From positions 5,337,333-5,401,332 of the forward strand of contig JACYXH010000429.1 of assembly GCA_026745465.1 (NCBI GenBank): a DNA stretch of 64,000 bases. The letters run 5' to 3'. The notes under the pieces are model-generated. The model searched no databases and was not told the origin of the DNA. It saw nothing but the letters and a program-made list of their open reading frames with translations. The stretch is from Lota lota. Lineage: Eukaryota > Chordata > Actinopteri > Gadiformes > Lotidae. Within the stretch, counting starts at the first letter, position 1. The number at the start of each line of letters is the position of its first letter. Positions 1,093-26,179 of the stretch are shown here, piece after piece. The translations under genes and the position numbers were made by a program.

Positions 1093-1628
1093 GGCTTCTC
1101 CTCTTCCTTGAACGTCCGGGTTCCTCCCACTCATATGAATGTTAGTCATTAAGGAAGTGACCTTGTAAAAAATTGTTAACGCTTAGTGTAGGCCTACCGG
1201 AAAAAAAAAAAGTGTATTAAATTGTAAATAACAGCCGAGCAAACGTTTGACATAGTAAGGGTTAGTAAGACTATGATTACAATTTACAATATATCCACCG
1301 GTGGTAACGGATATTAAGTATAGGCTACTACTATAACACAATATCATGTACTTTAAATAACGCGGCCATAAAGGTAATATGTGTAAATGAATTGGAGGAT
1401 TTAATTAGCTAATGCATAGGCCCAATTACTAACTTTCAACCTATAATGCATATAAAAAAAAGTTTAAAAGTGGTTTAGAGAAATAACCAGTTTGAGGAAA
1501 TTCTCCATCTCTATTACCAAGTTTCCGTAGAGGGTGCGCCTCATTCTCTCCGAAAAGGCGTGACGTCAGGGATTGGGTGTCCAGAGTGAATATAAAGCGC
1601 GTTCCTCGTACAACATTACATTCTAAGC
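1093..1628. promoter_or_regulatory. Divergent promoter region, gatd3-like gene / gene A, with CRE and TATA box
   Basis: This roughly 0.5 kb separates two head-to-head genes. On the plus strand, gene A has a perfect palindromic cAMP-response element TGACGTCA (1561-1568) and a TATA box (TATAAAG, 1591-1597) inside CCAGAGTGAATATAAA (1581-1596). The ATG at 1629 is only 38 bases beyond the TATA box, so the 5' UTR must be very short. The same 16 bases recur upstream of paralogue gene B (17388-17373, minus), which supports this as a true core promoter. Confidence 0.65.
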
Positions 1629-4600
1629 ATGGCTCAAGACTCGCGCGTTGTTCATTTTCCAGTTGGCATTTTAGGGATCTCCAGTGGTAAGAATATATTT
1701 ATAATTTTGATGCGTACGGTTTTACCTCTAATTTGATAACACTTATCTAAAGTAGACCATATATGTAAGTATAATATTACAGAATAATTATTATATAATA
1801 TATTAATTAATATTCATCAGTTAATTATGTTTAATTGTGGAGATATTAAAAAAATAATTAACTGTAGACCTAATTGAAAAACCTTATAGGGCTATGCCTG
1901 CAATGAAATCCCGCTATTAATGCAAGCATAGTTAGAAATTATTCATACAGAAAAAAAATACATAAAACATAAAACAATTAAATAAAGTATTATTGTTACA
2001 AAGTAAAACAAAAAGGTAGGACCCTTAACTCAATTGCAGTGTAGCCTACTGCGTTGGTCATTGGCAGGTGCAGCCCGTGTATAAGTCTGAGGGAATTGTA
2101 TTTTCAAATGACGGTGATGCAGATAGAAATCTGATATCACTTTTTATGTTGAACAACAGGTTCCCTGCTGCTTCTAGTAAACAACTATGCCAGCACTCCT
2201 GGGGAAGACTTCATCCCCCAGACTGCACTGGGGATTCTGCTCCTAGTGATTGCTGCTGTTTTAGCAAATGCTGGTTTGTTTCACGTTCTACTCAACTGGA
2301 ATATTAGCAGATTTCCTTCATTAATGTACTCATATTTGTGAAACTTACTCCACTTCCCTTCCTCTTTTATTTTCCTCCAGGTGTCCTTGGTCTCTCCCAT
2401 GGCCAACTGTTTTCCCTTGTGTGTCTGACAGTGTCTGGGCTATGGTGCGGCTCAGGCCTGGTGTACATTCTAGCAGGACAAGGGGTCCTTCAGCCCGATG
2501 ACTTAAAACCATCCCTGGTTCCTGGCCTGGCTGCTTTCACCCTGGCACTCATCCTAATAGCTATTGTAGCACTCTTAGCAAAGAGAGCTGTTCTCTTTAT
2601 CATAGCGCTAAGCATTAGCCTAGCATGCGCCCATCAAATAGCAAGCCTGTCGGCCACCGGCTTTGGCCGATCCGCCACGGCCGCTAACTACCTCTTTGTC
2701 AGTATGGTGGGGGTCTACTTTGGCGTTGGACACCTGTTGTCTTACATCACCCATGGTAAGGTGGAACTGGTCGCAACGTGGGCGAAAGAGAAGTCTGTTC
2801 AGAAAACGCAGCAGGACCCAGAATGCACCAGCATGATGTTAGTAAGCCTGGTGATGAACCTACTGGCTGCTTCCGTGCTAGCTTGTCCGCTGCTAGGTGT
2901 GGTTCCTCAGCTCTCCACGGGTCACGTGCCCTGGCTGTGGACGGCCGGCGTGTTTCAGCTGGGCATGTGCGTCCTCTCCTACCGTGCCATGGACACGCTC
3001 GGAGCCACCTTCTCCGGCTTCATGGCTCTGCTGAGGTTTGCCGAGGGCTACACTGCGCTCCTGACCCTATACTCCATCCAGCCCTATTCCCCCGTTCCTT
3101 TCCCCGTCGTCTTCTCCGTGCTGCTCTTCATCACGGCCGTGTTCAGCAGTCAGAAGAGTCTGCTGGAGGGCGTGTACCAGCTGTTCTTTGTGGCTTACTG
3201 TATCGCCATCGCTGTAGAGCCCCGCGGCTTCCTCCAAGGAGGCACCCAAGGCGTGCAGGCGGCCATTTTTGTAGTCTCCGCTGGCGTGTTGTTTGTTTAT
3301 GCTCTTAATATGCACTTTAGCAGGAGGATTCCTACAGGACAGGGCCTGTTGAAGGCTTTGGTGAGCAGGATGAATGCTCTCACTCTTAGACCCCAGGACA
3401 AAGACCTTCACACGCCTTATCTGGGCCTCTCCAAGTACGCTGACGCGGAGGTGTTGGGACATGCTTGCAGTGTGCTGGCTGCTTTCGCCATCACGGCCAC
3501 CGTCGGTGACAAAGGTCCGCTCTTTGTGCTGGTCCTCCCCTGGGCGGTGGTGGCTGGCGGGGTGCTGCAGATGCTTTGTGGCAGTGTGTGTTTTGCGCGG
3601 GGTAAGACCTTTGAGAGCACAGCCTTTATTCTTTATGGCGTGATGTGGGTCGTATGGGGGCTGACGCGATACGGCGGCCTGTATGGTGAAAGCAGAGGGT
3701 TTAACGTGGCTGTAGGAATCATTTGCTTCATGCTGTTCAACGTTTTGGTTACCGTTGCGGCGCTGTTCCTGAACGTGGCTTGGTTTGCCTATGCGCTGGC
3801 CTTCCAACTCATTCTGATTAGCTTCCTGCTCGACGCAATTGGGTCCCTGCCGTACGGCTATGACATCGGGGTCACTATCATCTTTGGCCTAGTCAGTTTC
3901 TATTGTTTCCTGGCTCACCTGTTCAACGGCACATTCCAGTCCCCCCAGATCCCTTTGGGACAAGCTCTGGTCAAGTTGAGTGGTACAGGGGGAAGCAGAG
4001 ATGTTTGCCTGCATGTACCAGCTCGGAAGGCTGCCTCTGTCAACCAGATTGCAGGTGAGGGAGCGTAGGCACAGTTCCATAGAAGTATTCCTTGGTGAAA
4101 TCTTCACGTTGTAATTTATTGAATATGTCATTAAACTATGTATCTTCCTTCTCTTGCAGAAATCATGAAAAATGGTGGTATATGTGGAATGCCGACAGAT
4201 ACAGTCTACGTGCTTGTGGCAGCTTGCAACAGGCCGGATGCTGTTGTCAAAGCTTACAAGTCAGCTCATTATTGTTTTGATTATGTAGTTTATTCTGATG
4301 CATACATATATTGCATTTTCCCCGTTGCCCCATTGTCTAATGATTGCATTGGATGTACTTGCAGAGTGAAAAAGCAGGCCCAGGATCGGCCCATGTCAAT
4401 GTGGATCTCGTCCATAAAGCAGCTGGAGCCGGTCAAGCACCTATTGAGCCCCCTGCTGCTAGATTTCATGCAGGCTGCATGGCCTTCCTCTATAAGCATG
4501 GTTATACCCAGAGGTAATGACCATATGTGGGTATGACTGCATATGTTTATATTTTGTGCTCTGCAAAAAAAAAAGATGTGCATGTGAAATAACAACAATA

Positions 4601-5488
4601 ATATGTGGGCTGTGTGTGTACCACTCCAAGATTTACATTTGATTCCTCTTTCAGGGCCCTGGCTGGATGCCTTTGGTTTAGGAGAGGCAGCGAAACACAT
4701 TGGAACCCCACAGAGCATTGCAATCAGAAACCCAGACTGTACTGTTGCCACACATCTCATTAATATGGTAATCCCTCAGACTGAAGTCATGGTCTCGCTG
4801 ATTTCCACAGTGGCACATTCATCCCACAGGCAGAATGCTATATTCTCTTGACTAAACTATGGCTTTATTATAGGTAGGACCAATAGCTGTTACATCGGCT
4901 AACCCTACAGGGGAAGCAGACACAACTCATCACAATCAAGTGTACGCCAAACTGGGAGACAAGGTGATTGCATGGAATTATATACTTTTTACTTTAATGA
5001 ATCACTATTGAAATAATTAATTGGAATCAAATCAAATGTCATAACGATAAGTAATTCAACTCCATAAAGATGAAAATAAAGGAAATAACTATAATATATC
5101 AACTCATCTAGGTCAATGGCATACTATGTGATGGGCCATCTCCAGAAAACATTGCTTCTACTGTGGTAGACTGCACCAAGATTGAAATGGGACATATTGG
5201 TTTCTTCAGGGTGGGTCTCATCCCAAAATCAAAGGTAAAATATTTCCCTTAAGTTGAATTCCTTTAGAAGAAAAACACAAGTATTCTTTCTTGCATGCTT
5301 TTGTTGTGAGTTCACCACATTCTTGTATGCATCTTTCCTGAAAGGTTCTGCACATTTTTGAAGAGGTTCGAAGACGACACAGGCATGGGGAAATGAATCC
5401 TGCTTTTGAGGGGGATATTTCAGACACACAAAGAAACGCTGGTATAGATGGAGAGATCACAGAGGAGCCTGAACAAAGAAATGAGTGA
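1629..5488 (+). CDS. Gene A: triple AceTr (SatP/Gpr1/Fun34/YaaH-like) membrane protein fused to a degenerate YrdC-like domain
   Basis: Nine exons join in consistent phase: 1629-1686, 2160-2273, 2381-4054, 4160-4259, 4365-4513, 4655-4767, 4874-4963, 5112-5234, 5345-5488, giving 854 residues. Residues 1-590 are very hydrophobic and hold three repeats related to acetate/succinate channels. The core motif appears as DTLGATFSGFMALLRF (about 262) and KTFESTAFILYGVMW (about 467), and repeats end in IPxGQxLxK-type segments (about 375 and 584). Residues 616-807 resemble YrdC/Sua5: PTDTVY (627-632) and SANPTGE (744-750). Those enzymes make threonylcarbamoyl-AMP for tRNA t6A. Here the expected K-x-R motif reads QDR and a second lysine is lost, so that activity is doubtful. 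The donor of exon 2 (GCTG then GTTTGT) is weak, but it is in phase and keeps alignment with gene B. The large exon 3 covers what is four exons in gene B. Product role unknown. Confidence 0.8.
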
Positions 5489-5518
5489 ACCACAACTCCA
5501 ATGAACACTTTCACCTGA

Positions 5519-7025: not shown

Positions 7026-7183
7026 TCCACATTTTTTTTAGTCTCCGGGTCCACTTTAAATCCGTCCTCTACAAATATACTATGAGGCAAATATACATAC
7101 CTCTAAACTGTGCCAAATATAACAAACTGAAACACAGAGTATTACCCAATGCTGGTAATGTTTATTGACTATTATCTTATATA
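7026..7183. repeat. Direct repeat R1 (158 bp) flanking a copied exon
   Basis: Almost identical to 7443-7600; one difference seen (gtcctctac against gtactctac). Between the two copies sits a duplicate of the last exon of gene A. Confidence 0.9.
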
Positions 7184-7446
7184 AAATATTTCCCTTAAGT
7201 TGAATTCCTTTAGAAGAAAAACACAAGTATTCTTTCTTGCATGCTTTTGTTGTGAGTTCACCACATTCTTGTATGCATCTTTCCTGAAAGGTTCTGCACA
7301 TTTTTGAAGAGGTTCGAAGACGACACAGGCATGGGGAAATGAATCCTGCTTTTGAGGGGGATATTTCAGACACACAAAGAAACGCTGGTATAGATGGAGA
7401 GATCACAGAGGAGCCTGAACAAAGAAATGAGTGAAACACAACTCCA
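7182..7446 (+). pseudogene. Duplicate of the last exon of gene A
   Basis: These 265 bases match 5236-5500 with one visible mismatch. They cover the end of gene A intron 8, its acceptor (TTTCCTGAAAG) and all of exon 9 through the stop codon. No other gene A exon is nearby, so it is an orphan exon, though it could in principle act as an alternative terminal exon. The near-identity implies a very recent event or an assembly/haplotype artefact. Confidence 0.9.
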
Positions 7447-7600
7447 CATTTTTTTTAGTCTCCGGGTCCACTTTAAATCCGTACTCTACAAATATACTAT
7501 GAGGCAAATATACATACCTCTAAACTGTGCCAAATATAACAAACTGAAACACAGAGTATTACCCAATGCTGGTAATGTTTATTGACTATTATCTTATATA
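7443..7600. repeat. Direct repeat R2 (158 bp), partner of R1
   Basis: Second copy of 7026-7183. Its first bases (TCCA) overlap the end of the copied exon segment, consistent with a microhomology join. Confidence 0.9.
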
Positions 7601-8207
7601 AGCACAGGAAAATAAATTTTCCTAATTTGATTAACATGTATTACAAGAATATTTTCTTAAAAAAGGAAAATAAATCTGAAATGCAGTTAAGTAACTGCTG
7701 ACTGAAAATGTAACTACTTCAATATTTTACAAACACGCTCTAAATAAACAATGGTTGGTTCACACAATGAATCTGGATTATTATTATAACACCATGTGTT
7801 AAATAATAATTAATGCAGTTATACATTTATTTCAAAGGGTCATGGACCCTATTCTTTCTATATTTTAAAGAAACGTTGAATGGTTTCGTCCTTATTTCGG
7901 GCAGATTTTCCATCACACACTTTTGAGATCCTTTAATTTCGTTGTATTTGAGTCGTAGGCCTCCTGCAGTTTCTGTGGTGCGGAGTTACTTTTGTTTACA
8001 GAAGTCCACACAATGCATGTTGTTGAACATGATCCACTTCACTCCAGGTTGCGGTTACCCCACCATATTCCACTGGAAATTCCTACACAAAGCCCTTCTT
8101 TACATTCATAGGCTAACTTCCTTTTACAACATTCTTTTGTAATTGCTCATGAGAAGACACAATATAGTTAATATAACAATTAATGTATTCCAAACCGCTT
8201 AGACTTA
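7601..8207. other. Intergenic AT-rich DNA
   Basis: Nothing recognised on either strand; no splice-framed exon or repeat unit stands out. Confidence 0.5.
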
Positions 8208-8498
8208 GACTTAGATTTAGATAAACTTTAATGCCCTCAAAGAGGCAATTTGTGGTACAGCTCAGAACACACAGACACATCAACATCAAAAGCACATCAG
8301 ACAAACAAAAACAACAGTTCATAGCACCCATCATAAACAACATTACAGTTCAGACTTAGATTTAGATAAACTTTAATGTCCTCAAAGAGGCAGTTTGTGG
8401 TACAGCTCAGAACACACAGACACATCAACATCAAAAGCACATCAGACAAACAAAAACAACAGTCCATAGCAGCCATCATAAACAACATTACAGTTCAG
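8208..8498. repeat. Tandem duplication of a 145-bp unit (2 copies)
   Basis: Copies at 8208-8352 and 8353-8498 differ at only a few bases. Each starts with a GACTTAGATTTAGATAAAC-type sequence. The unit resembles 3' tails of fish non-LTR elements, but that origin is a guess. Confidence 0.85.
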
Positions 8499-8609
8499 GC
8501 AGGCATTTAAAGTGCATGTCCAGAACTGCACACCAACAATTACCACAAAAAGAAATAGCAAGTACACTGCACATCCCCTATATATACATGTATATCACAT
8601 CCCCTAGTC

Positions 8610-10749
8610 CAGTGGTTCCCAACCTGGGGTGGCCAGGGGGAGCGCCAAAGAGCACAGTCTATCTGGTTTGAGGTTGAGGTAAAGAAATATTAGCACGTTA
8701 AAAAATTATGATAATACACCAGAATAGATAATGTATACAAAAGTCTGTATAAAAACTATATTTTTTGTATATAGAAAATATATATATATATACAATATAC
8801 AATTGTGGGCAAGCTACTTAGTAGGTCAAACCTCCGTGACCTCTTAACCTGTGACCCTTGCTGTCATCAGGTCAGGTGCTAGCTGCTGCTATCATATTTG
8901 TTTTTCCTGCCGCCACGGCATTATTTTATGAACGAAACATGGCGGAGAAACGTAGAAGTGCTGATGACTCCTCTGTATCAAAAAAGAAAGTAAGGCTATA
9001 TCTTGAGAGTTACCTCAACTTCGGTTTTATGGAAGGACAGGACAAGTTTCGGCCAGAATGTGTCATTTGTGGCGAGAAGCTAGCTAATGACAGCATGAAG
9101 CCAAGCAAAATGAAACGACACCAAGAAACAAAACACCAGGAGACTGTTGGTGAATGCCAGGACTTTTTTGAGAGGAAAAAGCAACATGCACTATCAAAAA
9201 GATCAACGGACATCAGAAAAGCATTTAAAAGAGCTGGCAGTGATTTACACAGAGCCACGGAGGCGTCATTTGAGTGTTCGCTATTAATTGCCAAGGCTAA
9301 AAAGCCACACACTATTGGAGAGCAGCTAATCAAACCCGCCTGCCTGAAAATTGTAGAGACTGTGTGGCCCACAGGTGGTGGATACAGTGAAAACTGTCCC
9401 ACACTCTGACAACACTGTCAAAGACAGAATTGATAAAATGACTGGAGATTGTCAAAACCAGCTGCACAAGACACTTATAAATGTTCCCTTTGCCATTCAG
9501 TTGGATGAAACGACAACAGTGTCAGACGAGTCCGTGCTCATCGTTTATGTGCAATATATTCACGGTGAGGACTTGAAACAAGACATTCTTATGTCTACCA
9601 ATCTAACCACAACAACAACAGGATAAGATATTTTTATGGCTGTTGACTCTTACCTCTCATCAAACAACCTGCCCTACGAGAATCTTGTTGCATGCTGCAC
9701 TGATGGCGCTGCAGCGATGATGGGAAAAAACAAGGGATTTAACAGCAGATTGAAGGAAAAAGCCCCGGGATGCGCAATTTTTCACTGTATGTTACATCGC
9801 CAAGCCTTAGCCAGTAAAAAAACTTTCAGAAGACCTCAGTGACACCCTGGCAAGTGTTGTTAAAGTTGTAAACTTCATCAAAGCTCGCCCTACGAACAAG
9901 AGACTGTTTGCCCAGCTGTGTGAGGATGAAGTGCATCAAACACTGCTGTTACACACAGAGGTACGTTGGTTGTCGCGTGGACAAGTGCTTGTGCGTTTTA
10001 TGGAACTGCAGGGAAAAATAAAGGAATTCTTGCAAGATCACAATCGACAACTGTGCGAACAGCTGACTGACACATTCTGGATCAAAACGGCATACCTAGC
10101 AGACATATTTGCTCTCTATAATGAGACAAACAAGCGGATGCAAGGCCCCGAATCAAACGTTATGCAGTGCAAAGATGCTCTCAGCACTTTTGTGCGCAAA
10201 ATGGAATACAGAGTTGGGAAAATGTCAAAAGGAGAGCTGCAACAATTTCCACTGCTGATGAAACAGTCTGGTGGCACTATGCGTGCGTCTTTACGCACTG
10301 AGTTTACCCAACACATGAACTTGCTCCAGGAGGAAGTTAAGTCCCGTTTTGCTGATGTTGACGAGTACTTATCAAAAGAGTCGTGGGTGATGGACCCCTA
10401 CATTTCCAGCATGGAGGAAGTGGAATATATCAGCTGTGAAGATGAGCTTGCTGAACTTCAAGCTGATTCTGCGTCAAAGAAATATTTCCAGGAGAACGGA
10501 TACAAAAGGTTTTGGATCGTCAAAGGACACGCTGTTGCACCAAGACTGGCCAAACACGCAATTACAAGGATTATTCTCCCATTCAGCACCACGCATCTGT
10601 CTGAGACGGCCTTTAGCGCCCTTGTAACAATAAAAACAAAGGCCCGTAACAGGCTCGATGTACACCAGGAGTTTAGGCTGGCTGTCACTAACCTCACACC
10701 GGACACTCCATCACTAGTCAGAGGTATGCAAGCCCAAGGTGGCCATTAG
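8610..10749 (+). mobile_element. Degraded hAT-superfamily transposon (ZBED5-like transposase)
   Basis: The left end CAGTGGTTCCCAACCTGGGG (8610-8629) is a typical hAT/Charlie inverted terminal repeat. The transposase reads from about 8938. A BED-like zinc finger lies near 9055-9150 (C-x2-C, then H-x4-H in RHQETKH). The catalytic-region signature LDETTTVSDES is near 9500, CCTDGAAAMMG near 9695 and the C-terminal dimerisation part ends at 10749. The frame is broken three times: a shift near 9365, an in-frame TAA at 9624-9626 and a shift near 9820-9840. It cannot encode a full transposase. No matching right terminal repeat was found before the LINE-like sequence at 10940, so the right end is lost. 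Confidence 0.88.
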
Positions 10750-10939
10750 TTCATGAATGAACAGGATGACACAGAGTAAAACATGTTCATAAGAGTTTAA
10801 TAAGTTATTGATTATTAGTGTTACATTAGAGCCAAATTAACACATATTGTACATCATGATTAACAGGTTTATCATGATGTATATTTGCATAAAAACATAA
10901 GAAAGACTGATTGGTATTGTTACTGAGCCAAATACATTC

Positions 10940-11120
10940 TTAATAGCTTTGTCAAAACCACATCCTGTACACATCCTGTTTGTGGACTTCAGCTCTGCCT
11001 TCAACACCATCATCCCGGCTCTGCTTCAGGAGAAACTCTCCCAGCTTGGTGTGCCTGACTCCACCTGTAGGTGGATCACTGACTTCCTGTCTGACAGGAA
11101 CAGGGCATGGAGACGTCCCT
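10940..11120 (+). mobile_element. LINE reverse-transcriptase fragment
   Basis: The plus frame reads HILFVDFSSAFNTIIPALL, the conserved RT palm A motif of non-LTR retrotransposons, then about 30 related residues before similarity ends. Only a short 5'- and 3'-truncated piece remains, abutting the gag-like segment. Confidence 0.8.
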
Positions 11121-11159
11121 GTTCCCTGGACATTGGCGGGCGATATGACCCGTCTGGCC

Positions 11160-11960
11160 ACAACTAAAACAGCGCCACTCGTCTTGGGGCTCCAGGGAGG
11201 GGCCCGGCGGTCTCGGCGTGGGAGGACGTCGCTGTGGGTCTGGTCCACGCCCGTCAATCCGGGGTTCGGTGGGTCGGACCTGGGAGCTAGCAGTTGCGCT
11301 TAGCGGTTGGGCAACCTGCCAGTTCTCCAGCTAGTGGATCAACTCATCCACAGTGTCAGGGTGGTGGGTGGCGAGGGTCCTCCGGGCGTCCAGCGGGAGC
11401 TCGCGAGGGTATTGTCAATTAGGACCCGGTCCAGAATGCTGGCTCCGTCCTCGGCCGTGAGCCACCTCTTGATGAGTCGTGCGTGTTGCGAGATCTGGGC
11501 CCTCACTGCACCCCTGGGATCAAACCGCCAGTCATGGAATCGCTGGGCTCGGGCGGCGAGGTTATGTCCATAGTAGGCTAAAATTGCCTGTTTCAGCACG
11601 GAGTACTGACTAGCACGATCCGGGGTTAGGTCCTGACTCGCCTGCTGGGCAGGTCCAGTAAGGAAGGGGGCCAGTATGTGGGCCCACTGCTCCTCCGGCC
11701 AGCGCTCTCGTCGGGCCGTCCTTTCAAAGACCTCCAGGTACGCCTCTACGTCGTCATCGGGGCCTTGTTTGGTGAGGCGGCATGTCGGGGCGGAAATCGG
11801 GGGGTCACGCGCCGACTGTCGTGTGAGGTGTAGGACTGCCTCCCGGAGGAGGGCTATGCTTTCGGCGGTATCTCTCTGTGCTGCCGCGGCCATGGCTTGG
11901 TCCTGCTGCTGGCGTTGGCTGCCGATCGTGTCGGCCGCTCCGCCGGGGTTCTGCATTACT
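11160..11960 (-). mobile_element. Ty3/gypsy-like retrotransposon gag fragment
   Basis: A minus-strand frame (11339-11956) codes about 205 residues. The N-terminus is rich in Gln and Ala, followed by an alpha-helical capsid-like region containing VEAYLEVFERTARRERWP and QYSVLKQAILAYYG. This is the SCAN/gag-like fold of fish gypsy elements. No zinc knuckle, protease, reverse transcriptase or LTR was found beside it, so it is an isolated piece. It is markedly more GC-rich than its surroundings. Confidence 0.7.
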
Positions 11961-11984
11961 GTTCGTTTGGTCTAAAATTGAATA

Positions 11985-12395
11985 TCAGTTCTTTGGTCTT
12001 GAATATGTTCAAATTCAAATGTGAGGCCTCACACCAGTTGACGAGGTCATTTCAAACTGGACCATGTTCTACTTCATCCTGCTCCAATAAGCTGACCAAA
12101 GCTGTGTCATCCGCAAACGTAATTAGATGGTGTCCAGGGTATCTGCTGCGACATCAGTACGTGTATGAAAAATATATTAAAGGTGACAGCACACTGCCCT
12201 GTGGTGTGCCAATAGAGGTAAAACGCACCTCTGACATAATATTGCCTACCCTTACCCTTTGAGATCTGCCCATAAGGAAATCCAAAATCCATGTGATCAG
12301 TTTTGAGTCTAATCCAAACTCTTTCAGTCTGTCAGCCAGGATTAATGGGTGGATTGTATTAAACGCAGATGAAAAATCGTATGAATCGCTTATTC
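11985..12395 (-). mobile_element. Second LINE reverse-transcriptase fragment, opposite strand
   Basis: The minus strand reads FSSAFNTIHPLILADRL, then a stretch ending GTPQGSVLSP, which are RT motifs A and B of a non-LTR element. It differs from the plus-strand fragment at 10940 and so represents another family or insertion. Confidence 0.8.
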
Positions 12396-13462: not shown

Positions 13463-16400
13463 TCACAGCATATGACGTTTCACTCTCTCAAAGATCTGTT
13501 GGACCTTCACAGCAGGGACACACCCCTCCCTTACAATGCCAATGGTACCTGTGGGGAACAAACAAATAAAAACGGTGATGGTTTAATGTGATGCAGGATC
13601 GTCACTGGATTGGTTCAGAATTTGTTGGGTAAAAGATGGTATTCATTGTACCTTCATCTATCTTCAGGCAGTTGACCACTGTGGAGGCCACGACTTCGTT
13701 AGAGTCCCCGTCACACAAAACCCCTTGGATCTTGTGTCCTAATCGGCTGCAAGCAAATGCAACAACAATATAATGAATTACAATGAACAACAAAACCAAA
13801 ATGATTCAAGAACAATGGTGTAGATGTGTGAGGGGCTCCACTCACCTGAGGACCATGGAGTGGTGAGTGCTGTCAGGCTCTCCGCTTGGATTGGCTGACG
13901 TAATGGCAAGAGGTCCGGTGAGATCGCACAGATGTCCGGTGACGGTGTGGTCAGGGACTCGGATCATGATGCTGTCTTTGGTTCCCACGCGGTCGTACGC
14001 CGCCCCGACACCTATGCAGGACAAGTGAACATTAAAGTCAATCCTGAAACTCTCATTCAAATCCTCCCTCCCCCCTTACTATCATATCAGCAGCCAAGTC
14101 CTACCCAGTTTGTAGAGCCAGTCGCTTTTGCTCACGATGCAGCTGACGCCTCCAGGATAGACGCTCCTCATGAACTCCCACAGCAGAGGGCTGAAGGGTG
14201 GCTTGGCTGCGATCAGCTGTTCCACGCTGGAAATGCAAATACAGATGGGCTTTTCTGCGGGTCTATCCTGAAACAAGGACACGGAGCACAAGTTTAGCAT
14301 GTCCACGTACGCCAGCCTTCTTGAAAATGATCTTTCTTCAAAGTATGGATTTCGCTTACTTTGATGTTGTAGATCTTCTCGATGGCCTGGGGATTCTTGC
14401 AGGAGGCAGCCAGGGCATACACTGTGTCAGTGGGAATACCACAGACTCCACCTTCATCCAGGAGTTTGGTTATCGTCAAGAGGCCACTGGTGAGCCGGGA
14501 TTCAGCCACAGGGCAAGGGAGCAGAGGTTTCTCCTCGTGTTTCTTCTGATCCTAAAATCATTGGAGATTTGTGGTTAATCAAATGTATTTTGTAGAATAG
14601 CATAAAACAGAATATAATATAATATTCAGTCACCTTGAGTAGGGCTTGACCCATTGGTAGAAATCTCTGTGTGAAGATGCAATTCACCAATGATGCAAGG
14701 GCTCCATATATACAGATGATGGAAAGTATGGTAAGCATGGCAACTGAAATAGAAACAGCAAGAATGTGTATTAGAAAATACTTTCACAAATGGATTGTAA
14801 TAATATTACACATCAACAAGGGGGGGGGGGGGAAGGTTGAGGGTTGCCTACTTTCTAATTTGTATGGAAGTTGCTGCAGGGTGGAGAGCAGAAAACACAC
14901 CAGTACCACCTCCATGATTGCTGTTAAAAACAGCAAAACCAGGTTCCTATATGAAGCTGCCAAAAATAAAAGTAAATACCAGTTAATCAAAATACTGATA
15001 TATCCATCTTTATCTTTGAAATAAGTTTGTATCTGAGCTTACCGATTAGCATAAGGAATCCATTGATAACCAGGAATGCAATAGCACCTGCTGTGAACCC
15101 ATGGGCTGCCATTGAAGACAACTGGATCAGAACACCTGTAATGGAAATATGTGTCACTTAAGATCAAGCCAGTCCCACTGAGAATACAAACGACAAATAA
15201 ATAAACCCCAAATACAAACAAATGAATAGCCTACCTGCAAATCTAAACCAGGTCCATGTGGCCCACACCACTGCATAGAAGAAAGGGATGACAGACCCAA
15301 ATCGCCCTCCGCCACGGATCTGCACCTGGCTCACGTATCCCTGGATAATAGCTCCAGATATCAATACCCAAGGCACGGTCAGATGCAGGAAGTTGGAGTT
15401 AGTGCTGGTCGAACTGGCATGTAGCGCAGAGAGAGCCGCCACTCCGTTGGAGATGTAGAAAAGAGCTTCTGGGATCTGGTCGTTTTGAGGAGCCTCCCCC
15501 GGGTCTCTGTGGTCAGATCGGCCGCAGCTCAGGATCCTTTTGAGCTGGTCCGTGGAGACCGGCTGGGTTCCTACCGGGATCAGGGACTTCTCGGCAATGG
15601 TGTTGATGAGGCGTGAGAAGGTGCCATAGAGGGAGGCTGCAGTGAACAGGGAACAGGCCACACCAAAGAAGATGTAGTATCCCTGCAGGGGGATCTGAGG
15701 GATGCTGGAGATTGTGAGCAGGAGGAAGAGCGTGTTGTGGCTCAGCTCCAGGCAATCTGTGTTCAGGCTTCCCACGCAGAGCACCAAGGCTGCAGCCACA
15801 AAGAACCAGTTCCCCACCATTGCTTCCCGTCCTGAGGACACTTTATTAGCATCATGAATTAGCACAGATGCTATGAATTCCTCCCAGGCCTTGATAAGCC
15901 AGTAGGTCACATGGAGACCAAATTTGGTAGCATGGTAGCAGTCTTGGCGGAGGTGGGCGTAGTAGGTGGCGAATAGCTGGGCAGCGGAGATTATCGACAC
16001 CCATGCAACTCCTAATCCAAAGGATTTCACATAGCCGAAGCAGTAAAAAGCGAAGATGAATGAAGAGACAGTGTCACAGAAGGAGCCCAATGCCATTGGC
16101 TCGGCATACTTTGTGTTCTTCTTCTTTTCCTGGCCGATGCTCTGTGCGCTGGCTGAGTTAGCTGTTCCAAGAAGAAGGACATTGAATAGGGGGGTCCCAA
16201 AGCCTTTCAGGGCTAGGCGCTGAGTCAGCCCTTTAACCAGAAGTGCAGCTGAGCCATAGATGGCAAATATCAGAATGAGAAGCTCCAAGATCCCAGCGAT
16301 CACTAGGGCCCACGAGTTGGCCACCAGTGCCACTGCTTCAAAGATTAATGTTAGTGTGATTGCTCCAAACACAAAGGGCATGATGTAGTTTACTGTGGCA

Positions 16401-17054
16401 GAGCAAAATGCAAGGAGAAACGAGAGGAGGATATAAGGCACCAGACCAGAAATAGCTGCAGATTCCTGTATTGACAAAGACGAAAGTAAATCAGGGGTAA
16501 CTGAAGTGGTATTTATGTGAGACAGGTTGCTCATCAGGTTGGTTGACATATTGTTTATCATATCATGTTGCACTAGTATTGTTGTTGTGACAGCTCCAGT
16601 TGCAACACCGTTGTATATTCTGGTAGCACCATAACTACCCCAGAGAGCAGCATAGCCAATAAAGGCGGTTCCACTCAAATGGTCATATTTGCGAAAGGAA
16701 AGCAACCCGGCGACCAATTGACAAATTCCACCAATCAAAATAAGGTGTACACCTAAAAAATAGATGGGAGAGAACAACAATTGTTAGAATTGGAATATAG
16801 GTAGAATTAGATATAAAGATTAGGTGCACGATTTTTGCTCAATATCTCTTCGTTAGTACTATAGACAAGTAAAAGACAAATAGGTGGGACGATTTACCTG
16901 CAAGAATGTTCTCTACCCCTACTGGGGAGATTCCAGTCTGCGCTGCATTGAAGTTTTGTAGAAGTACAAGAAATGCACTGATGCCATTGGCTAACATGCC
17001 TAGAACCCCTGGTTCGCCATAAAAACTGGCAGGAAAACCGTTTGAATTTGCCAT
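13463..17054 (-). CDS. Gene B: triple AceTr (SatP/Gpr1/Fun34/YaaH-like) membrane protein fused to a YrdC/Sua5-like domain
   Basis: Ten exons join in phase: 17054-16898, 16752-15235, 15135-15043, 14956-14852, 14743-14634, 14551-14360, 14267-14105, 14011-13846, 13746-13652, 13548-13463, giving 894 residues. Residues 60-83, GGICQLVAGLL then SFRKYDHLSGTAF, closely match the bacterial acetate/succinate channel SatP around its GGIxQxxAG and K-x-NTFG-x-TAF motifs. A second repeat starts with AEPMALGSF (about 267; SatP has NPAPLG) and ends LIPVG (about 445); a third ends RFLPMGQALLK (651-661). Some 18 membrane spans are expected. Residues 675-892 are YrdC-like: PTDTVY (701-706), KDRP at an exon junction (K-x-R motif kept), RVPDH and TSANPSGE (817-824). 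Family activities are carboxylate uptake and threonylcarbamoyl-AMP synthesis; why they are fused is unknown. It lies head-to-head with acod1. Confidence 0.85.
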
Positions 17055-17371: not shown

Positions 17372-17388
17372 TTTTATATTCACTCTGG
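17372..17388 (-). promoter_or_regulatory. Core promoter of gene B
   Basis: CCAGAGTGAATATAAA on the minus strand (17388-17373) is identical over 16 bases to the gene A promoter (1581-1596), including the TATA box. The start site would be near 17345, leaving a 5' UTR of about 290 bases or a short 5' UTR intron; a possible acceptor (CCCAAAAG) is at about 17079. Confidence 0.6.
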
Positions 17389-18061
17389 CTAACGCTGCTT
17401 AATGGGAAGGAAGCAGCCGTCAGCATTAAGCATTTATTCAAAACTCAGAGGGAAGACAGAGATGAATACCCACAGAGGTAATGTAGTTATTTAATCAGTT
17501 TAAATAATTAGGATTTACAAAGTTATTTTTTACGAATAAGATGACAAAAAGTAATCAATTTAAAATTGATATTGTTTTTATTCCCTTTATTATGTTTAAC
17601 TTTACTGCCCATTTTAAAGATACAAGCTACCTGTAAAGTACATTAGTGGTGTAGCTATGGTTAAAACTGCTTGGTTTAAAACAGTGTCTTAACACACGTG
17701 ACCTAATGTGATACAGGTACACAAAATATACAACGTTTCCTACCTGGTGAGATGAGAGTATACCCAGGTAGCTGAAGTGATGCTTCTTATTTTGAGGTAG
17801 AGGTAGAAGCTCGTCATAAATAAGGATTTCCAGAGTCGGGGAGGGGTTTCAGAAAAATACCTGAGACCCACCCAGTTATTGTCCTCGATTGCATCAGGAC
17901 AATGAACTCCTCCTCCTCCAACCCCTCTTACGATGAGGGTGATGACGATGTTGATCTTTTATTAAGCATCTCATTTTTCTTCTGGGAATGTTTCGTGATG
18001 ACAAAATGGAAATCCTGTGTTTCCTTCAGAGCCAATGGGCTGGGCCGAGTGCTATAAAAGG
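17389..18061. promoter_or_regulatory. Shared upstream region of gene B and acod1; acod1 TATA box and STAT-like site
   Basis: The acod1 side has a strong TATA box, CTATAAAAGG (TATAAAAG at 18054-18061), placing the start near 18085. TTCTGGGAA (17980-17988) fits the TTCN3GAA STAT/GAS half-palindrome about 70 bases upstream. The two TATA boxes are about 0.68 kb apart and point away from each other. That the STAT-like site works is inference; mammalian ACOD1 is strongly induced by interferon and TLR signals. Confidence 0.5.
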
Positions 18062-18225: not shown

Positions 18226-20118
18226 ATGATGATCTCCAAACTACAGGTAAAGATGAAGCAACTTTATCAATAAATGTACCAACCTCCTACTTGGGCTTTA
18301 GTTCTTGAATCACATTTGGGAAACTGTGTTGAGAAGTTTTACTCCTTAATTGACACTCTGTATAGAGTCTCGGTCCACATCTTGAAAGACCATCTGTATT
18401 ATCAAATGTTTCAATGTGGAGAGCAAAACTAAAATAATTATCTGTTTTTGGTTATGTTATGGGTGAACATCATAACTTTGTTTTATGAGTGCCTGTGTTG
18501 CACTTCATAAACATGGCACACACATAAAATCATTTTATTTAATAAGATGTGTGTCTGACAGAGTGTTTCGTTTTACTTGTAATTACATTAAAAGTACTCT
18601 TGAAAACAAACACACATTGACTTTTGAACTCTCTTTGTGTTCCACAGAAAACCACAAGGTCAGTGGGCGCAATGAGGTGCATGCATCGATCAGGAACTAA
18701 AGGTAAAAAAAAGGTTTATTTATTCTGTTTATTCTGTTTATTTATTCACACTGATAATGATGAAGTAAAAAGTATGGCTTATCTTAATATATGACTGATT
18801 GTCTTATTTCAACTGATAAGAGACATGAGTAATTTAGATTTGCTTTTATAAATCCTCTCTTTCCCTGGAGCACCTCTCTTCTCCACGTTCTTGTTGGATG
18901 CACCTGCACACCTCTCCTTTGTTGCTCATCTCTTATCAATTCCACATTCCTTGGCTTCACATCAGCTCTCCCGGCGTCGGCCCAGCATGCGGTCGTGGAG
19001 CGCCCTGCCCCCGAAGAGACGGTGACCGCCAGCTTCGGGAGGTTCATCAGCGGCCTGAAGGCCCAGCACCTGACCCCTACCGTGCTCCACCGCAGCAAGA
19101 GGATGGTGCTGGACAGCCTGGGGGTGGGCCTGCTTGGCAGCACCACAGACGTGTTTGAGCTGGCTCTGCAGCACTGCCAGGTGAGGTCTTCTAAAAATGT
19201 ACCGCTTCACCGTCGTGATGAGATGCATGGCCTTATGAGGAACTACGATCAAATGAGCTCATATGCCATCAGCTGTTTCTATGTGATTGCATGACATTGG
19301 CTGCATTTCTTCGTGGTGACCTTAAAGGCAGACTGTGCTAGACAGCTCCCGCTCCACACAGACAGAGAATGGCCATGGAAATGAGGGTTGGGTTAGGGTT
19401 CGTTATTTGAGCCTAAAAATGGACACAATGAGTAGTTGGGTTTCAGTGCTTGATTGAGTCACTTGATTTGTATTCATCCATTGTGCATAATCATCCATTC
19501 TCTACTGCAGCAAATGTACGCACCTGATGACATCAGCTCTGTCTACGGCCGCAATGGGACTAAACTGTCCCCATTATTGGCGGCCTTCGTCAACGGAGTG
19601 GCAGTAAGTATTGCAAACGTGAAACGCATTCAAAAACTGTGAGATGTGTAATGTGATGTCAAAAGCATTGAGACCGATACGAAGTATATATCAGAGTATT
19701 ATGAGGTCATATATATGCTTTATATGTACCAATTGCATATCATTCCTTCCTTTTTGTTGTAGGTTCACTCCATGGACTTTGATGACACGTGGCATCCAGC
19801 AACTCACCCATCAGGAGCAGTTCTTCCAGCCCTGCTGGCCGTCAGTGACATGATGCCCCCGAACAGGAAGCCCAGTGGCCTGGACCTACTGCTTGCCTTC
19901 AATGTTGGCATTGAGATCCAAGGTCGATTGATGAGGTTCTCCAACGGCGCCAGCAACATCCCCAAGAAGTGAGTTGAGCACAGAAATTCCCAGGATGACT
20001 TTGATGAAATCTTGGCAGAACCTGCAGTGTTTCTTGTCTTGTTGTGCACTGCAATTCAGTAGGTCAAAGACACCTTTACGCCACTAGGTGCACACAGTTG
20101 AAATGCACTTGCTCATCT

Positions 20119-20200
<82 letters not shown>

Positions 20201-21133
20201 GCCAGGTTCCATCCTCCCAGTGTGGTTGGCCCTATGGGAGGTGCAGCAGCGTGTGCTCATCTCTTGTCTCTGGACCCCTCCCAGTGCAGCCACGCCTTGG
20301 CCATCGCTGCCTCTCTAGCTGGCGCCCCAATGGCTAACGCCGCCACTCAGTCCAAACCGCTCCACATCGGCAATGCTTCCCGCCTGGGTATGGAGGCTGC
20401 GCTGTTGGCATCCAGGGGTCTGGAAGCTAGTCCTTTAATCTTGGACTCTGTCACTGGCGTGGCTGGCTTCAACGCCTTCTATGAAGACTACATGCCACTG
20501 CCATTGAATTTAGCCAAACCTGAGGGCCACAGCTTCTTAATAGAGGATCAGGACATTGCGTTCAAACGCTTCCCCGCCCACCTGGGCATGCACTGGGTGG
20601 TCGACGCTGCAGCCTCTGTCCATAAGCTTATTGTGGGGGTTGATTCCGGAACAGTCTCTGCCTCCCAGGTCAAGGACATCCTGCTGAGGGTCCCCCGCTC
20701 CAAGTACATCAACCGGCCCTTCCCAGAGTGCGAGCACCAGGCGCGCCATTCCTTCCAGTTCAACGCCTGCAGCGCCCTCTTGGACGGGGAGGTGACAGTG
20801 CAGTCCTTCACTACAGGTGCCATAATGCGGCCGGAGCTGGCGGCACTGCTGAGCCTGGTCCGCGTGGAGCACCCGGCCGACAACCCTGCAAACTTTGACC
20901 TCATGTACGGCGAGGTCCAGGTGACGCTCGACGGCGGAGACGTTCTCAGGGGGCGGTGTGACACCTTCTACGGACACTGGCGTAACCCGCTGACCAATGA
21001 GAGCCTGAGGAAGAAGTTCCGGAGCAACGCGGGGGCAGTGCTGCCTCCGGAGAAGGTGGAGGACCTGATTGAGACAGTGGAAGCTCTGGATGAGCTACCA
21101 GACTGCACACCTCTCCTCTTAAAACTGCAGTGA
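18226..21133 (+). CDS. acod1: cis-Aconitate decarboxylase (immunoresponsive gene 1)
   Basis: ACOD1/IRG1 converts cis-aconitate to itaconate in the mitochondria of activated macrophages; itaconate is antimicrobial and dampens inflammation. Six exons join in phase: 18226-18246, 18648-18702, 18966-19180, 19511-19603, 19763-19968, 20206-21133, giving 505 residues (human 481). The N-terminus, MMISKLQKTTRSVG then MRCMHRSGTK, is basic with no acidic residue, as in a mitochondrial targeting peptide, and is longer than in mammals. The MmgE/PrpD-family core is intact: SMDFDDTWHPATHPSG holds the equivalents of human D93, T97 and H103. RFHPPSVVG, KPLHIGNA, AFKRFPAHL and KYINRPFP carry the equivalents of H159, K207, K272/H277 and Y318. 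It should be an active enzyme. The last intron ends in a very long CT repeat. It is divergently arranged with gene B. Confidence 0.96.
20120..20198. repeat. (CT)n repeat acting as the polypyrimidine tract of acod1 intron 5
   Basis: About 39 CT units end seven bases before the acceptor CCGCCAG at 20199-20205. Confidence 0.95.
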
Positions 21134-24339: not shown

Positions 24340-24925
24340 AATAGCAACGACGAGATGGTGAACATATTGTTGTGACTGATGACATCTTCCTTTCTGGAGT
24401 AACTTAAGTAAAGTGAAAAATGTATGTTACAGCTGAAATGCAGCACCATTGAGAGTCAACACGATGGGATCAGGTTATTGATGGACTGAAGCTGTGTATA
24501 ATGCACACGGAAGAGGTTATGTTACAATAACGCACACTAAAAGAGTAGGAAAGGTGTGGAGGAAGCTGTGGAGGATGAATGGATCAAACACAGGACTTTT
24601 ACCCTGGAGACTGCGGTTCATGTCTATAAAATTTTGACTTAATATATATTTAATGTGTTTTTTTGTTTTCGTTTGGATAGGTTAAACAACACAACTGCTT
24701 GATTAAGTTAAGGCAACAAAACTTATGTTTAGGGTGCATTATTGTAACATAACATGCATAATACACAGTTTCAGGCCATCAATTACCTGATCCCCTCGTG
24801 TTGACTCTCAATGGTGCTGCATTTCAGCTGTGACATACATCTTTCACTTTACTCAAGTTCACCAGGAAGGAAGATGTTATCAGCCACAACAGTATGTACA
24901 CCATCTCGTCGTTTCTGTCAACCCA
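24340..24925. repeat. Large foldback (inverted repeat), arms about 190 bp
   Basis: Arm 24340-24535 is the reverse complement, with a few mismatches, of arm 24733-24925; the loop is about 200 bases. Shared landmarks are ACAGCTGAAATGCAGCACC in arm 1 and its complement in arm 2. Copy 2 of the duplication keeps the right arm (about 29465-29665) but not the left. Confidence 0.85.
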
Positions 24926-26179
24926 TAGGAAAGAATGATCAAGTCAGTCTTTAACGTCACTGTTTTTTCTCTAATATACAAAGGCTGTGTTTTTTTATGT
25001 ACCATTTGCTGCCATGTCCATATATGGCTGGGAGACATACAGACTTCCTGTGCAACATGGATTGCAGATCATGGCATCTTTCGGCACCTGTGAGAACGTG
25101 TTTGCTTTCTCCGCTATGCAGTGAAGAAGGTGTCAACTTATCATCTGAAAAAAATAGCTCTATCAACATTTCCCCAAAATAAAATGTTGTTTTCATGAAA
25201 TGCCAAACGGTCAAAAATATCAAATTATACTAAATTGATTATATTAATATTAACAAACAGAGCACCGTAGCAATCAGAGATGAAAAAAGTTTGTACCCAT
25301 GTCTTTGTTTAAGGACAATGTGATGATCTGTTGTGGTGTGTCTTCCAAAATACACTAGAGTGTCTCACTCAACACCCCAACTCATAACAATAAAGCAATG
25401 GTCACCACTTGAAGTATTGTAAAAAGTACACCACTTTTCTTGTTTTTCTTGATTATGAATGATCCTAATAGTATTTTCTTAAAATGAACATAAGATGTGG
25501 TGCATCACGGTCTTCAAAAAGACACTGAAACTAAACAAGAAACTCCATTTGTTATACTTCATTTCTATCTTAAGAATCAAGCAATGTCCAGACCTGGAAG
25601 GAATGCTAATCTTCCGGATTATCTTCGTCTTTATTCATTCTCAGAAGGAAGTGTGATGATTATGTTAGGTGACACACATTGGTGCAGTTTTCCAAAGGAC
25701 ACTGAAACATCTAAAAACGAAATTGCTTAATGATGTCCCTCATAACAAAAACCATCCATCCCTCTTATCAAAGCAATAGATTAAAATGAACAGATTAAAC
25801 GTTTTTAAAATACAACTTTGTTTTTTTTTTGGTCAGAGATGTTAAACTTGACCCCTTTACAACCTTTAATCACACAATTAATACTTGAGTTTCGCTTATA
25901 ACAATAACGTGACTACACACCTTCCAGGAACTAATACACCCCCTTTATGCATGAATTAAAGTAAACCATTGTTGTCGTGATATAATGTTATGCCTTTGTC
26001 TTGGTCAACACATTCACCACATTAGACCTACAAAAAATGGTTTCTTATGTGATATTAAAAGTCCATGCCAAAACAAAAACATTTCAGGTTATTTTTTATT
26101 GAGGTATCACATAAAAAGATATTGATGTTTTTACTAAGTATTATGTTCTCTAAGTAGGGCTTTTCTCGTGATGACGTGC

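What the first reader, a model, noticed from the sequence alone, without database searches (positions are those of the whole stretch)
13463..17054. Animal fusion of three SatP-type channel repeats with a YrdC/Sua5-like domain (gene B)
The first repeat has the SatP signature almost unchanged (GGICQLVAGLL, then SFRKYDHLSGTAF), and the C-terminus has PTDTVY, K-x-R, RVPDH and TSANPSGE of the threonylcarbamoyl-AMP synthase fold. AceTr channels are known in bacteria, archaea and fungi; YrdC is a soluble tRNA-modification enzyme. I know of no described pairing of the two. Ten splice-consistent exons with an open frame throughout show it is a real gene. It could couple carboxylate or bicarbonate transport to a carbamoyl-type reaction, or the YrdC fold could be a nucleotide sensor; both are speculation.
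Basis: partly seen in the sequence, partly recalled or inferred. Interest (0 to 1): 0.9.

Follow-up and report, generated by a model that had tools for sequence, protein, structure and literature searches.

The report
Fish fused channel-enzyme gene beside itaconate synthase
This fish gene really does join bacterial-type acid-channel units to a tRNA-modification-type enzyme domain; such fused proteins were described in vertebrates in 2026, and the less expected part is that the gene sits back-to-back with the gene that makes the antibacterial acid itaconate, which suggests what it might carry.

Summary
Ten exons on the minus strand (17054..13463) join into one open frame of 894 aa. Pfam places PF01184 (SatP/Ato/YaaH) at the N-terminus and PF01300 (Sua5/YrdC) at the C-terminus, both above cut-off. 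Gene A (1629..5488) is a paralogue of the same layout. A profile of the six repeats of A and B finds the solved SatP structures first (E 7e-11; next 0.17). The A-B-acod1 block is duplicated 31-34 kb upstream, splice sites kept, no stops, dN/dS 0.10-0.26.

The pairing is not new: an iScience paper of June 2026 (PMC13316224) describes vertebrate Ato proteins with three channel units and a Sua5/YrdC tail. Its main text does not mention acod1 or itaconate.

What this window adds is linkage. Gene B lies head-to-head with an intact cis-aconitate decarboxylase (itaconate synthase) gene in two of two blocks, and zebrafish genes of this type by name are co-expressed with irg1l. My working hypothesis is an infection-induced carboxylate channel, possibly for itaconate, with a cytosolic YrdC domain. 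Neither substrate nor catalysis is shown.

The parts
16898..17054 (-). gene B exon 1 (start codon, first helix and start of second helix of SatP-like unit 1)
   Evidence: ORF and splice check; kept in tandem copy
15235..16752 (-). gene B exon 2 (rest of unit 1, all of unit 2, start of unit 3); N-glycosylation sequons at aa 120, 128 and 133
15043..15135 (-). gene B exon 3 (unit 3)
14852..14956 (-). gene B exon 4 (unit 3)
14634..14743 (-). gene B exon 5 (end of unit 3, LPMGQALLK, corresponds to SatP LPIGE end)
14360..14551 (-). gene B exon 6 (linker and start of YrdC domain; PTDTVY, Lys725 of KxR)
14105..14267 (-). gene B exon 7 (YrdC; Arg727 of KxR)
13846..14011 (-). gene B exon 8 (YrdC; Ser818-Ala-Asn820 of SxN)
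13652..13746 (-). gene B exon 9 (YrdC; Ser856)
13463..13548 (-). gene B exon 10 (YrdC; Arg873; stop)
17373..17388 (-). putative TATA element of gene B, CCAGAGTGAATATAAA
   Evidence: exact 16-mer shared with gene A; 2 matches in the window at up to 3 mismatches; longest shared word in 500 Markov shuffles 14; not exact in the upstream copy of B
1581..1596 (+). putative TATA element of gene A, same 16-mer
   Evidence: exact in upstream copy of A
1629..5488 (+). gene A, paralogue with the same layout, 9 exons (1629-1686, 2160-2273, 2381-4054, 4160-4259, 4365-4513, 4655-4767, 4874-4963, 5112-5234, 5345-5488), 854 aa; YrdC domain lacks Arg of KxR
18226..21133 (+). acod1/irg1-like gene (cis-aconitate decarboxylase), 6 exons (18226-18246, 18648-18702, 18966-19180, 19511-19603, 19763-19968, 20206-21133), 505 aa, divergent from gene B
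18052..18061 (+). putative TATA element of the acod1-like gene (CTATAAAAGG), about 660 bp from that of gene B

Best explanation
Gene B (and its paralogue A) is an intact, selected member of the vertebrate Ato-Sua5/YrdC fusion family: three tandem SatP-like six-helix units (about 18 helices) followed by a TsaC-type YrdC domain. Like SatP it should form anion pores, and two proteins could make the six-unit SatP ring (published idea, PMC13316224). If the topology is that of SatP (recalled: both ends cytosolic), the YrdC domain is cytosolic and the sequon-rich loop of unit 1 is outside. I think it most likely works as an inflammation-induced carboxylate channel that serves the itaconate response: acod1 makes itaconate from cis-aconitate, and the co-regulated neighbour moves it (or another TCA-derived acid) across a membrane, while the YrdC domain binds ATP, threonine or bicarbonate and either gates the pore or uses a substrate. 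Shown here: gene structure, domain identity, selection, linkage, retained YrdC substrate residues in B. Inferred: transport, substrate, direction, membrane, gating or catalysis. My own split: family identity about 0.95; still an anion or carboxylate channel about 0.6; itaconate pathway role about 0.3. The confidence below is for the whole statement.
For: Identity; layout repeated in gene A. Real coding genes: upstream copies keep the splice sites without stops, dN/dS A 0.235, B 0.262, acod1 0.096. YrdC substrate residues of Pa-Sua5 as listed in PMC10321239 (K56, R58, S143, N145, T33, S181, R195): 7 of 7 in B, 6 of 7 in A. Itaconate link: intact acod1-like gene (551.6 bits to a solved cis-aconitate decarboxylase) head-to-head with B, ATGs 1172 bp apart; 2 of 2 blocks keep the A-B-acod1 order; no further Ato-like gene came up in the 575 Mb assembly (exon-by-exon searches, of which one search also missed gene B itself). 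[quoted passage not shown] .3 and .5 share a hub module with irg1l.4 and .5 are among the top up-regulated genes with irg1l under PFOS.4.3 and .5 correlate with irg1l over 18 exposure conditions (r 0.90, 0.88, 0.86). AceTr pores can be made to carry succinate by one constriction change (SatP L131A).
Against: No assay, no RNA, and no structure run here. NPAPLGL is intact in 0 of 6 repeats and Phe17 in 0 of 6; changes in NPAPLGL impair yeast Ato1 (PMC13316224), so the pores may be dead or altered. The engineered AceTr variants tested for succinate seem to move the monovalent anion (PMC9409672), whereas itaconate is divalent at neutral pH (recalled). The second acod1 paralogue (C592, 54-61% identical by segment) has no Ato-like gene in 732000-781999, so acod1 does not always go with it. 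Two other genes track irg1l as closely. NF-kB, C/EBP and AP-1 consensus scans show no excess. Linkage was examined in one genome only, and orthology of the zebrafish genes was not tested. dN/dS for the YrdC part of B alone is 0.38 on 4 synonymous and 5 non-synonymous codon changes, too few to be decisive.
Confidence: 0.35

Rival explanations
1. An acetate or other monocarboxylate channel, like its microbial relatives; the neighbouring acod1 is coincidental or only shares inflammatory regulation.
For: Known AceTr members carry acetate by H+ symport or as anion channels (PMC13316224 and PMC8471396). The acod1 paralogue on C592 has no such neighbour in the 50 kb read. Other genes also track irg1l closely (sult5a1 r 0.91; si:ch211-207n23.2, identity unknown to me, r 0.90).
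Against: The constriction Phe17 is absent in 6 of 6 repeats and NPAPLGL is broken in 6 of 6. The block is kept together in two tandem copies.
Confidence: 0.25
2. The membrane part has lost transport and serves as an anchor or sensor; the YrdC domain is a membrane-held nucleotide, threonine or bicarbonate sensor.
For: Channel signature motifs lost; unit 2 is hardly recognisable on its own; gene A keeps the domain but lacks Arg of KxR.
Against: dN/dS of the membrane part is 0.24 in B and 0.28 in A, and Tyr72 is kept in B1, B3 and A3.
Confidence: 0.2
3. A membrane-tethered TC-AMP synthase that makes t6A precursor, with the pores supplying bicarbonate or a substrate.
For: 7 of 7 substrate-binding residues kept in B and the TsaC-type Thr before SxN; TIGR00057 120.4 bits.
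Against: A separate yrdc-like gene exists on C826, so t6A probably does not need B (inference). B falls just under the TIGR00057 cut-off of 123.2. Gene A has KKQ in place of KxR.
Confidence: 0.15
4. Gene-model artefact: two neighbouring genes wrongly joined.
For: No transcript evidence was available here.
Against: Matching phases and splice sites, same layout in paralogue A, junctions kept in the tandem copy, published family of the same layout.
Confidence: 0.03

Closest known systems
Vertebrate Ato (AceTr) - Sua5/YciO/YrdC fusion proteins, PMC13316224 (iScience 2026)
   Same: About 900 aa, Gpr1/Fun34/YaaH units (three by the published model), C-terminal Sua5/YrdC domain, fish members, two clades (here A and B differ strongly: 140 of 589 aligned membrane positions and 97 of 210 aligned YrdC positions identical)
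   Different: The paper gives no genomic neighbourhood or YrdC active-site analysis in the sections I read (8, 14, 15); this locus adds acod1 linkage, tandem duplication of the block, and loss of KxR in gene A. Whether A and B fall into its two clades was not tested.
SatP / YaaH (E. coli, C. koseri; PDB 5zug, 5ys3)
   Same: Six-helix unit; pooled repeat profile finds it first (E 7e-11); end motif LPIGE ~ LPMGQ
   Different: Single unit of 188 aa, no YrdC, intact NPAPLGL and Phe17/Tyr72/Leu131; the fish repeats lack NPAPLGL and Phe17
TsaC/Sua5 threonylcarbamoyl-AMP synthase (PDB 9d3h, 6f89; separate yrdc-like gene at C826:5299462)
   Same: YrdC domain, KxR/SxN and threonine-site residues in gene B
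   Different: Attached to a channel; no SUA5 domain; below the TIGR00057 equivalog cut-off; gene A lacks the Arg of KxR
HypF and TobZ (YrdC fused to Kae1-like domain; PMC9654439, passages)
   Same: Precedent for YrdC-like domains working inside multidomain proteins on carbamoyl chemistry
   Different: Partner there is a Kae1 transferase domain, not a membrane channel
ABCG2 and SLC13A3, mammalian itaconate exporter and importer (review PMC13307414, passages and reference titles)
   Same: Would fill a similar role if the itaconate reading is right
   Different: Unrelated families (recalled)

Membership tests
Vertebrate Ato-Sua5/YrdC fusion family (PMC13316224) | C-terminal Sua5/YciO/YrdC domain behind Gpr1/Fun34/YaaH units in one protein of about 900 aa | tested here: met
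   894 aa, PF01184 and PF01300 both above cut-off
Vertebrate Ato-Sua5/YrdC fusion family (PMC13316224) | Three six-helix units in tandem | tested here: inconclusive
   18 or 19 hydropathy peaks and pooled profile to SatP E 7e-11, but only 2 of 6 single repeats pass Pfam; structure prediction unavailable
AceTr family (PF01184) as a sequence family | Profile score above the curated cut-off | tested here: met
   B 31.3 bits, A exon 3 29.4 bits, cut-off 25
Canonical AceTr transporter (SatP, Ato1) | NPAPLGL motif at the start of TM1 | tested here: not met
   Intact in 0 of 6 repeats; best B1 EPGVLGM and B2 EPMALGS, 3 of 7
Canonical AceTr transporter (SatP, Ato1) | FLY constriction (Phe17, Tyr72, Leu131 in E. 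coli SatP) | tested here: not met
   Phe17 0 of 6; Tyr72 in 3 of 6 (B1, B3, A3); Leu131 in 2 of 6 (B3, A2); residue numbers recalled, letters checked in the sequence
Canonical AceTr transporter (SatP, Ato1) | Carboxylate transport | not testable with these tools
   needs flux assay
TsaC/Sua5 TC-AMP synthase | KxR/SxN tetrad plus Thr33, Ser181, Arg195 (Pa-Sua5 numbering) | tested here: met
   Gene B 7 of 7; gene A 6 of 7, so not met there (Arg58 is Gln)
TsaC/Sua5 TC-AMP synthase | NCBIfam TIGR00057 equivalog cut-off 123.2 bits | tested here: not met
   B 120.4, A 102.2
TsaC/Sua5 TC-AMP synthase | TC-AMP synthesis | not testable with these tools
   needs enzyme assay
ACOD1 / cis-aconitate decarboxylase (neighbour gene) | Full-length match to solved ACOD1 | tested here: met
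   E 1.8e-164, aa 44-501 aligned to 5-456 of 7br9; activity not testable

The most novel reading that the evidence does not exclude
The vertebrate Ato-YrdC proteins are itaconate channels: acod1 and a head-to-head, co-induced 18-helix channel with a cytosolic ATP/threonine/bicarbonate-binding domain form a two-part antibacterial module (make the acid, move it), and mammals, which keep ACOD1 but are reported to lack these channels, had to use unrelated transporters.
Probability: 0.25. Interest if true: 0.88.

Novelty: new member of a known kind. Interest (0 to 1): 0.58.

Why it matters
The vertebrate family was reported only in 2026, and that paper leaves its function open. The genomic and expression link to itaconate synthase gives a concrete, cheap test of what vertebrate Ato-YrdC proteins do, and of how fish move an antimicrobial dicarboxylate. 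If right, it would explain why a microbial-type acid channel was kept in vertebrates, and it would raise the question of what replaced it in mammals.

Tried and rejected
Mis-joined genes: rejected. Pair profiles A1/B1 and A2/B2 alone do not find SatP (it is not among the 8 best targets shown, which are mostly shuffles), and A3/B3 does so only barely (E 0.01 against 0.019 for the best of 5000 shuffles). The profile of A1-A3 does not separate it (SatP E 0.61, behind 5 shuffles). Only the three-repeat profile of B (7.8e-8 against 0.067) and the six-repeat profile do. phmmer of gene B exon 2 alone against solved structures gave no SatP; gene A as a single query gave SatP only at E 0.24 and 1.5. 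The PF06284 hit is below cut-off and taken as chance. NF-kB, C/EBP and AP-1 scans show no excess. A second acod1 locus was checked for Ato genes: none within the 50 kb read. Intron positions of A and B do not coincide at any site in one alignment (closest pair 2.3 columns apart), so a recent A/B duplication was rejected.

Literature searches that bear on an acod1-Ato or itaconate-YrdC link: (the other two answered searches, 74 and 80, were for SatP and Sua5). I saw listings only, and capped ones for (20 of 38 papers; 20 of 976; 30 of 967; 12 of 54). In these I found nothing beyond co-listing of gene names. One search returned one amino-acid review, which I did not open.
Full report
What is there. 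The minus-strand gene B runs from 17054 to 13463. Ten exons with GT donors, AG acceptors and matching phases give 894 aa without a stop. Pfam finds PF01184 (GPR1/FUN34/YaaH, 31.3 bits, cut-off 25) at aa 11-98 and PF01300 (Sua5/YciO/YrdC, 124.7 bits) at aa 691-875. A second gene, A, on the plus strand (1629-5488, nine exons, 854 aa) has the same order of parts. A and B are identical at 140 of 589 aligned membrane positions and 97 of 210 aligned YrdC positions, and none of their introns coincide in that alignment (closest pair 2.3 columns apart), so they are probably old paralogues.

Is the membrane part SatP-like? Single repeats are weak: 2 of 6 pass Pfam (B1, A3) and 4 of 6 give no PF01184 hit. 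Single-sequence searches of solved structures do not reach SatP either (gene B exon 2; gene A, E 0.24 and 1.5). An alignment of the six repeats turned into a profile and run against 177635 solved sequences returns SatP of 5zug (E 7e-11) and 5ys3 (2.4e-10), then nothing better than 0.17. The profile of the three B repeats also finds E. coli SatP (7.8e-8; best of 5000 shuffles 0.067), while the profile of the three A repeats does not (SatP E 0.61), nor do the pair profiles A1/B1 and A2/B2. Hydropathy gives 18 peaks in A and 19 in B at thresholds 0.6-0.9. The signature motifs of working transporters are degraded: NPAPLGL intact in 0 of 6, Phe17 in 0 of 6, Tyr72 in 3 of 6, Leu131 in 2 of 6 (one alignment of divergent sequences). 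So the part is SatP-derived, but not a canonical AceTr transporter, and its substrate cannot be read from the motifs.

Is the YrdC part able to work? PMC10321239 (passages) lists K56, R58, S143, N145, T33, S181 and R195 as the ATP- and threonine-binding residues of Pa-Sua5. Gene B keeps 7 of 7; gene A keeps 6 of 7, with Gln for R58. Both have Thr before SxN, the residue which that paper gives as typical of TsaC rather than Sua5. Gene B scores 120.4 bits against the 123.2 cut-off of TIGR00057. A separate yrdc-like gene lies on another contig of the assembly.

Is it a real gene? The assembly that holds the window (575 Mb, 867 contigs; window = C429:5337333-5401332) has a second copy of the block 31-34 kb upstream. 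Copies of A, B and acod1 there keep the splice sites of all modelled exons and have no stop; dN/dS is 0.235, 0.262 and 0.096 (no significance test was made). Split by part: B membrane 0.24, B YrdC 0.38 (4 synonymous, 5 non-synonymous codon changes), A membrane 0.28, A YrdC 0.15 (4 and 2). Exons of B are 98.4% and introns 97.4% identical between copies. A stretch at about window 8354-11966 is missing from the upstream copy. I cannot exclude that the second copy is a haplotype placed in tandem by the assembler. Either way it is a diverged allele or copy that keeps the gene model.

Surroundings. The acod1-like gene (18226-21133, six exons, 505 aa, open) matches solved cis-aconitate decarboxylase along aa 44-501 (E 1.8e-164). 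It is divergent from gene B: start codons 1172 bp apart, putative TATA elements about 660 bp apart. Genes A and B share an exact 16-mer around their putative TATA boxes; the longest word shared in 500 Markov shuffles was 14. It is exact in the upstream copy of A but not of B. In the assembly, PF01184 matches only A and its copy at E 0.001 (gene B, split by introns, is missed), and the B membrane sequence matches only A, B and their copies among the candidates scored. A second acod1 paralogue on C592 (54-61% identical by segment) has no Ato-like gene in the 50 kb read around it.

Expression from the literature. Six papers hold the zebrafish-type names si:ch211-153b23.3.4 or .5. In 4 of 6, irg1l appears in the same gene list or table: Shigella infection (PMC6980646, section 7 read.4 is labelled YrdC domain-containing protein-like), an iron-oxide nanoparticle module (PMC11140123, passages), PFOS exposure (PMC9228135, passages) and a three-chemical exposure table (PMC8877790, passages and section 33). 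In 2 of 6 the main text names neither irg1 nor acod1. In Table 2 of PMC8877790 (66 rows; 63 with 18 values used, 3 with missing values dropped) irg1l correlates with .4.3 and .5 at r 0.90, 0.88 and 0.86; of the 59 other rows 2 are as high (sult5a1 0.91, si:ch211-207n23.2 0.90), the next is tcp1 at 0.62, and the lowest is -0.51. The rows are genes pre-selected as responsive. That .4 and .5 are orthologues of A and B is inferred from names and labels, not tested.

Known or new? PMC13316224 (sections 8, 14 and 15 read, other passages) reports vertebrate Ato proteins with three units and, in almost all sequences, a Sua5/YrdC tail, in two clades with representatives of every major vertebrate lineage except mammals, and superposes a fish member on SatP (TM-score 0.82). 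So the fusion is already described and this gene is a further member. Its main text contains none of itacon, irg1, acod1, synteny, neighbo or zebrafish. I found no paper linking the family to itaconate (searches and their caps listed under Tried and rejected).

Mechanism. My reading is an inflammation-induced carboxylate channel whose substrate may be itaconate. AceTr pores can be made to carry succinate by one change (SatP L131A), but the variants tested appear to move the monovalent anion (PMC9409672, passages), which would suit acidic compartments such as phagosomes better than neutral ones (inference). Three N-glycosylation sequons lie in the loop after the third helix of unit 1 of B (aa 120, 128, 133), which the SatP topology (recalled) puts outside; this favours a membrane of the secretory pathway over mitochondria (inference). 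The YrdC domain would then be cytosolic. All of this needs the assays listed.

Noticed in passing
window 1-26921 and C429:5306146-5330501: The A-B-acod1 block is duplicated 31-34 kb upstream at roughly 90-97% identity by segment, either a recent tandem duplication or a haplotype placed in tandem by the assembler.
   Followed up: partly
window 7182-7446 and 5236-5500: The last exon of gene A with flanks is duplicated downstream (99.6% identical), with a further short repeat 7026-7184 / 7443-7601.
   Followed up: no
window 8354-11966: Stretch missing from the upstream copy. Two ORFs looked hAT-like and one gag-like to me by eye (no Pfam hit at E 0.001); an RVT_1 fragment lies just outside at 12154-12393 minus.
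   Followed up: no
window 18226-18702: The acod1-like protein begins with a basic leader lacking acidic residues (MMISKLQKTTRSVGAMRCMHRSGTK), possibly a mitochondrial targeting signal.
   Followed up: no
window 33871-35649 and 42706-46962, minus strand: A RING-finger ORF (RLIM-like by recall) and a PF15735/DUF4683 ORF (NEXMIF-like by recall), neighbours in mammals too as I recall.
   Followed up: no
gene A exons 4-5, window 4160-4513: The YrdC domain of gene A has KKQ in place of KxR in both tandem copies, suggesting a catalytically impaired partner of B.
   Followed up: partly
window 24673-25819 and 29377-30552: Both stretches match the same part of the upstream copy, so they are local repeats.
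   Followed up: no
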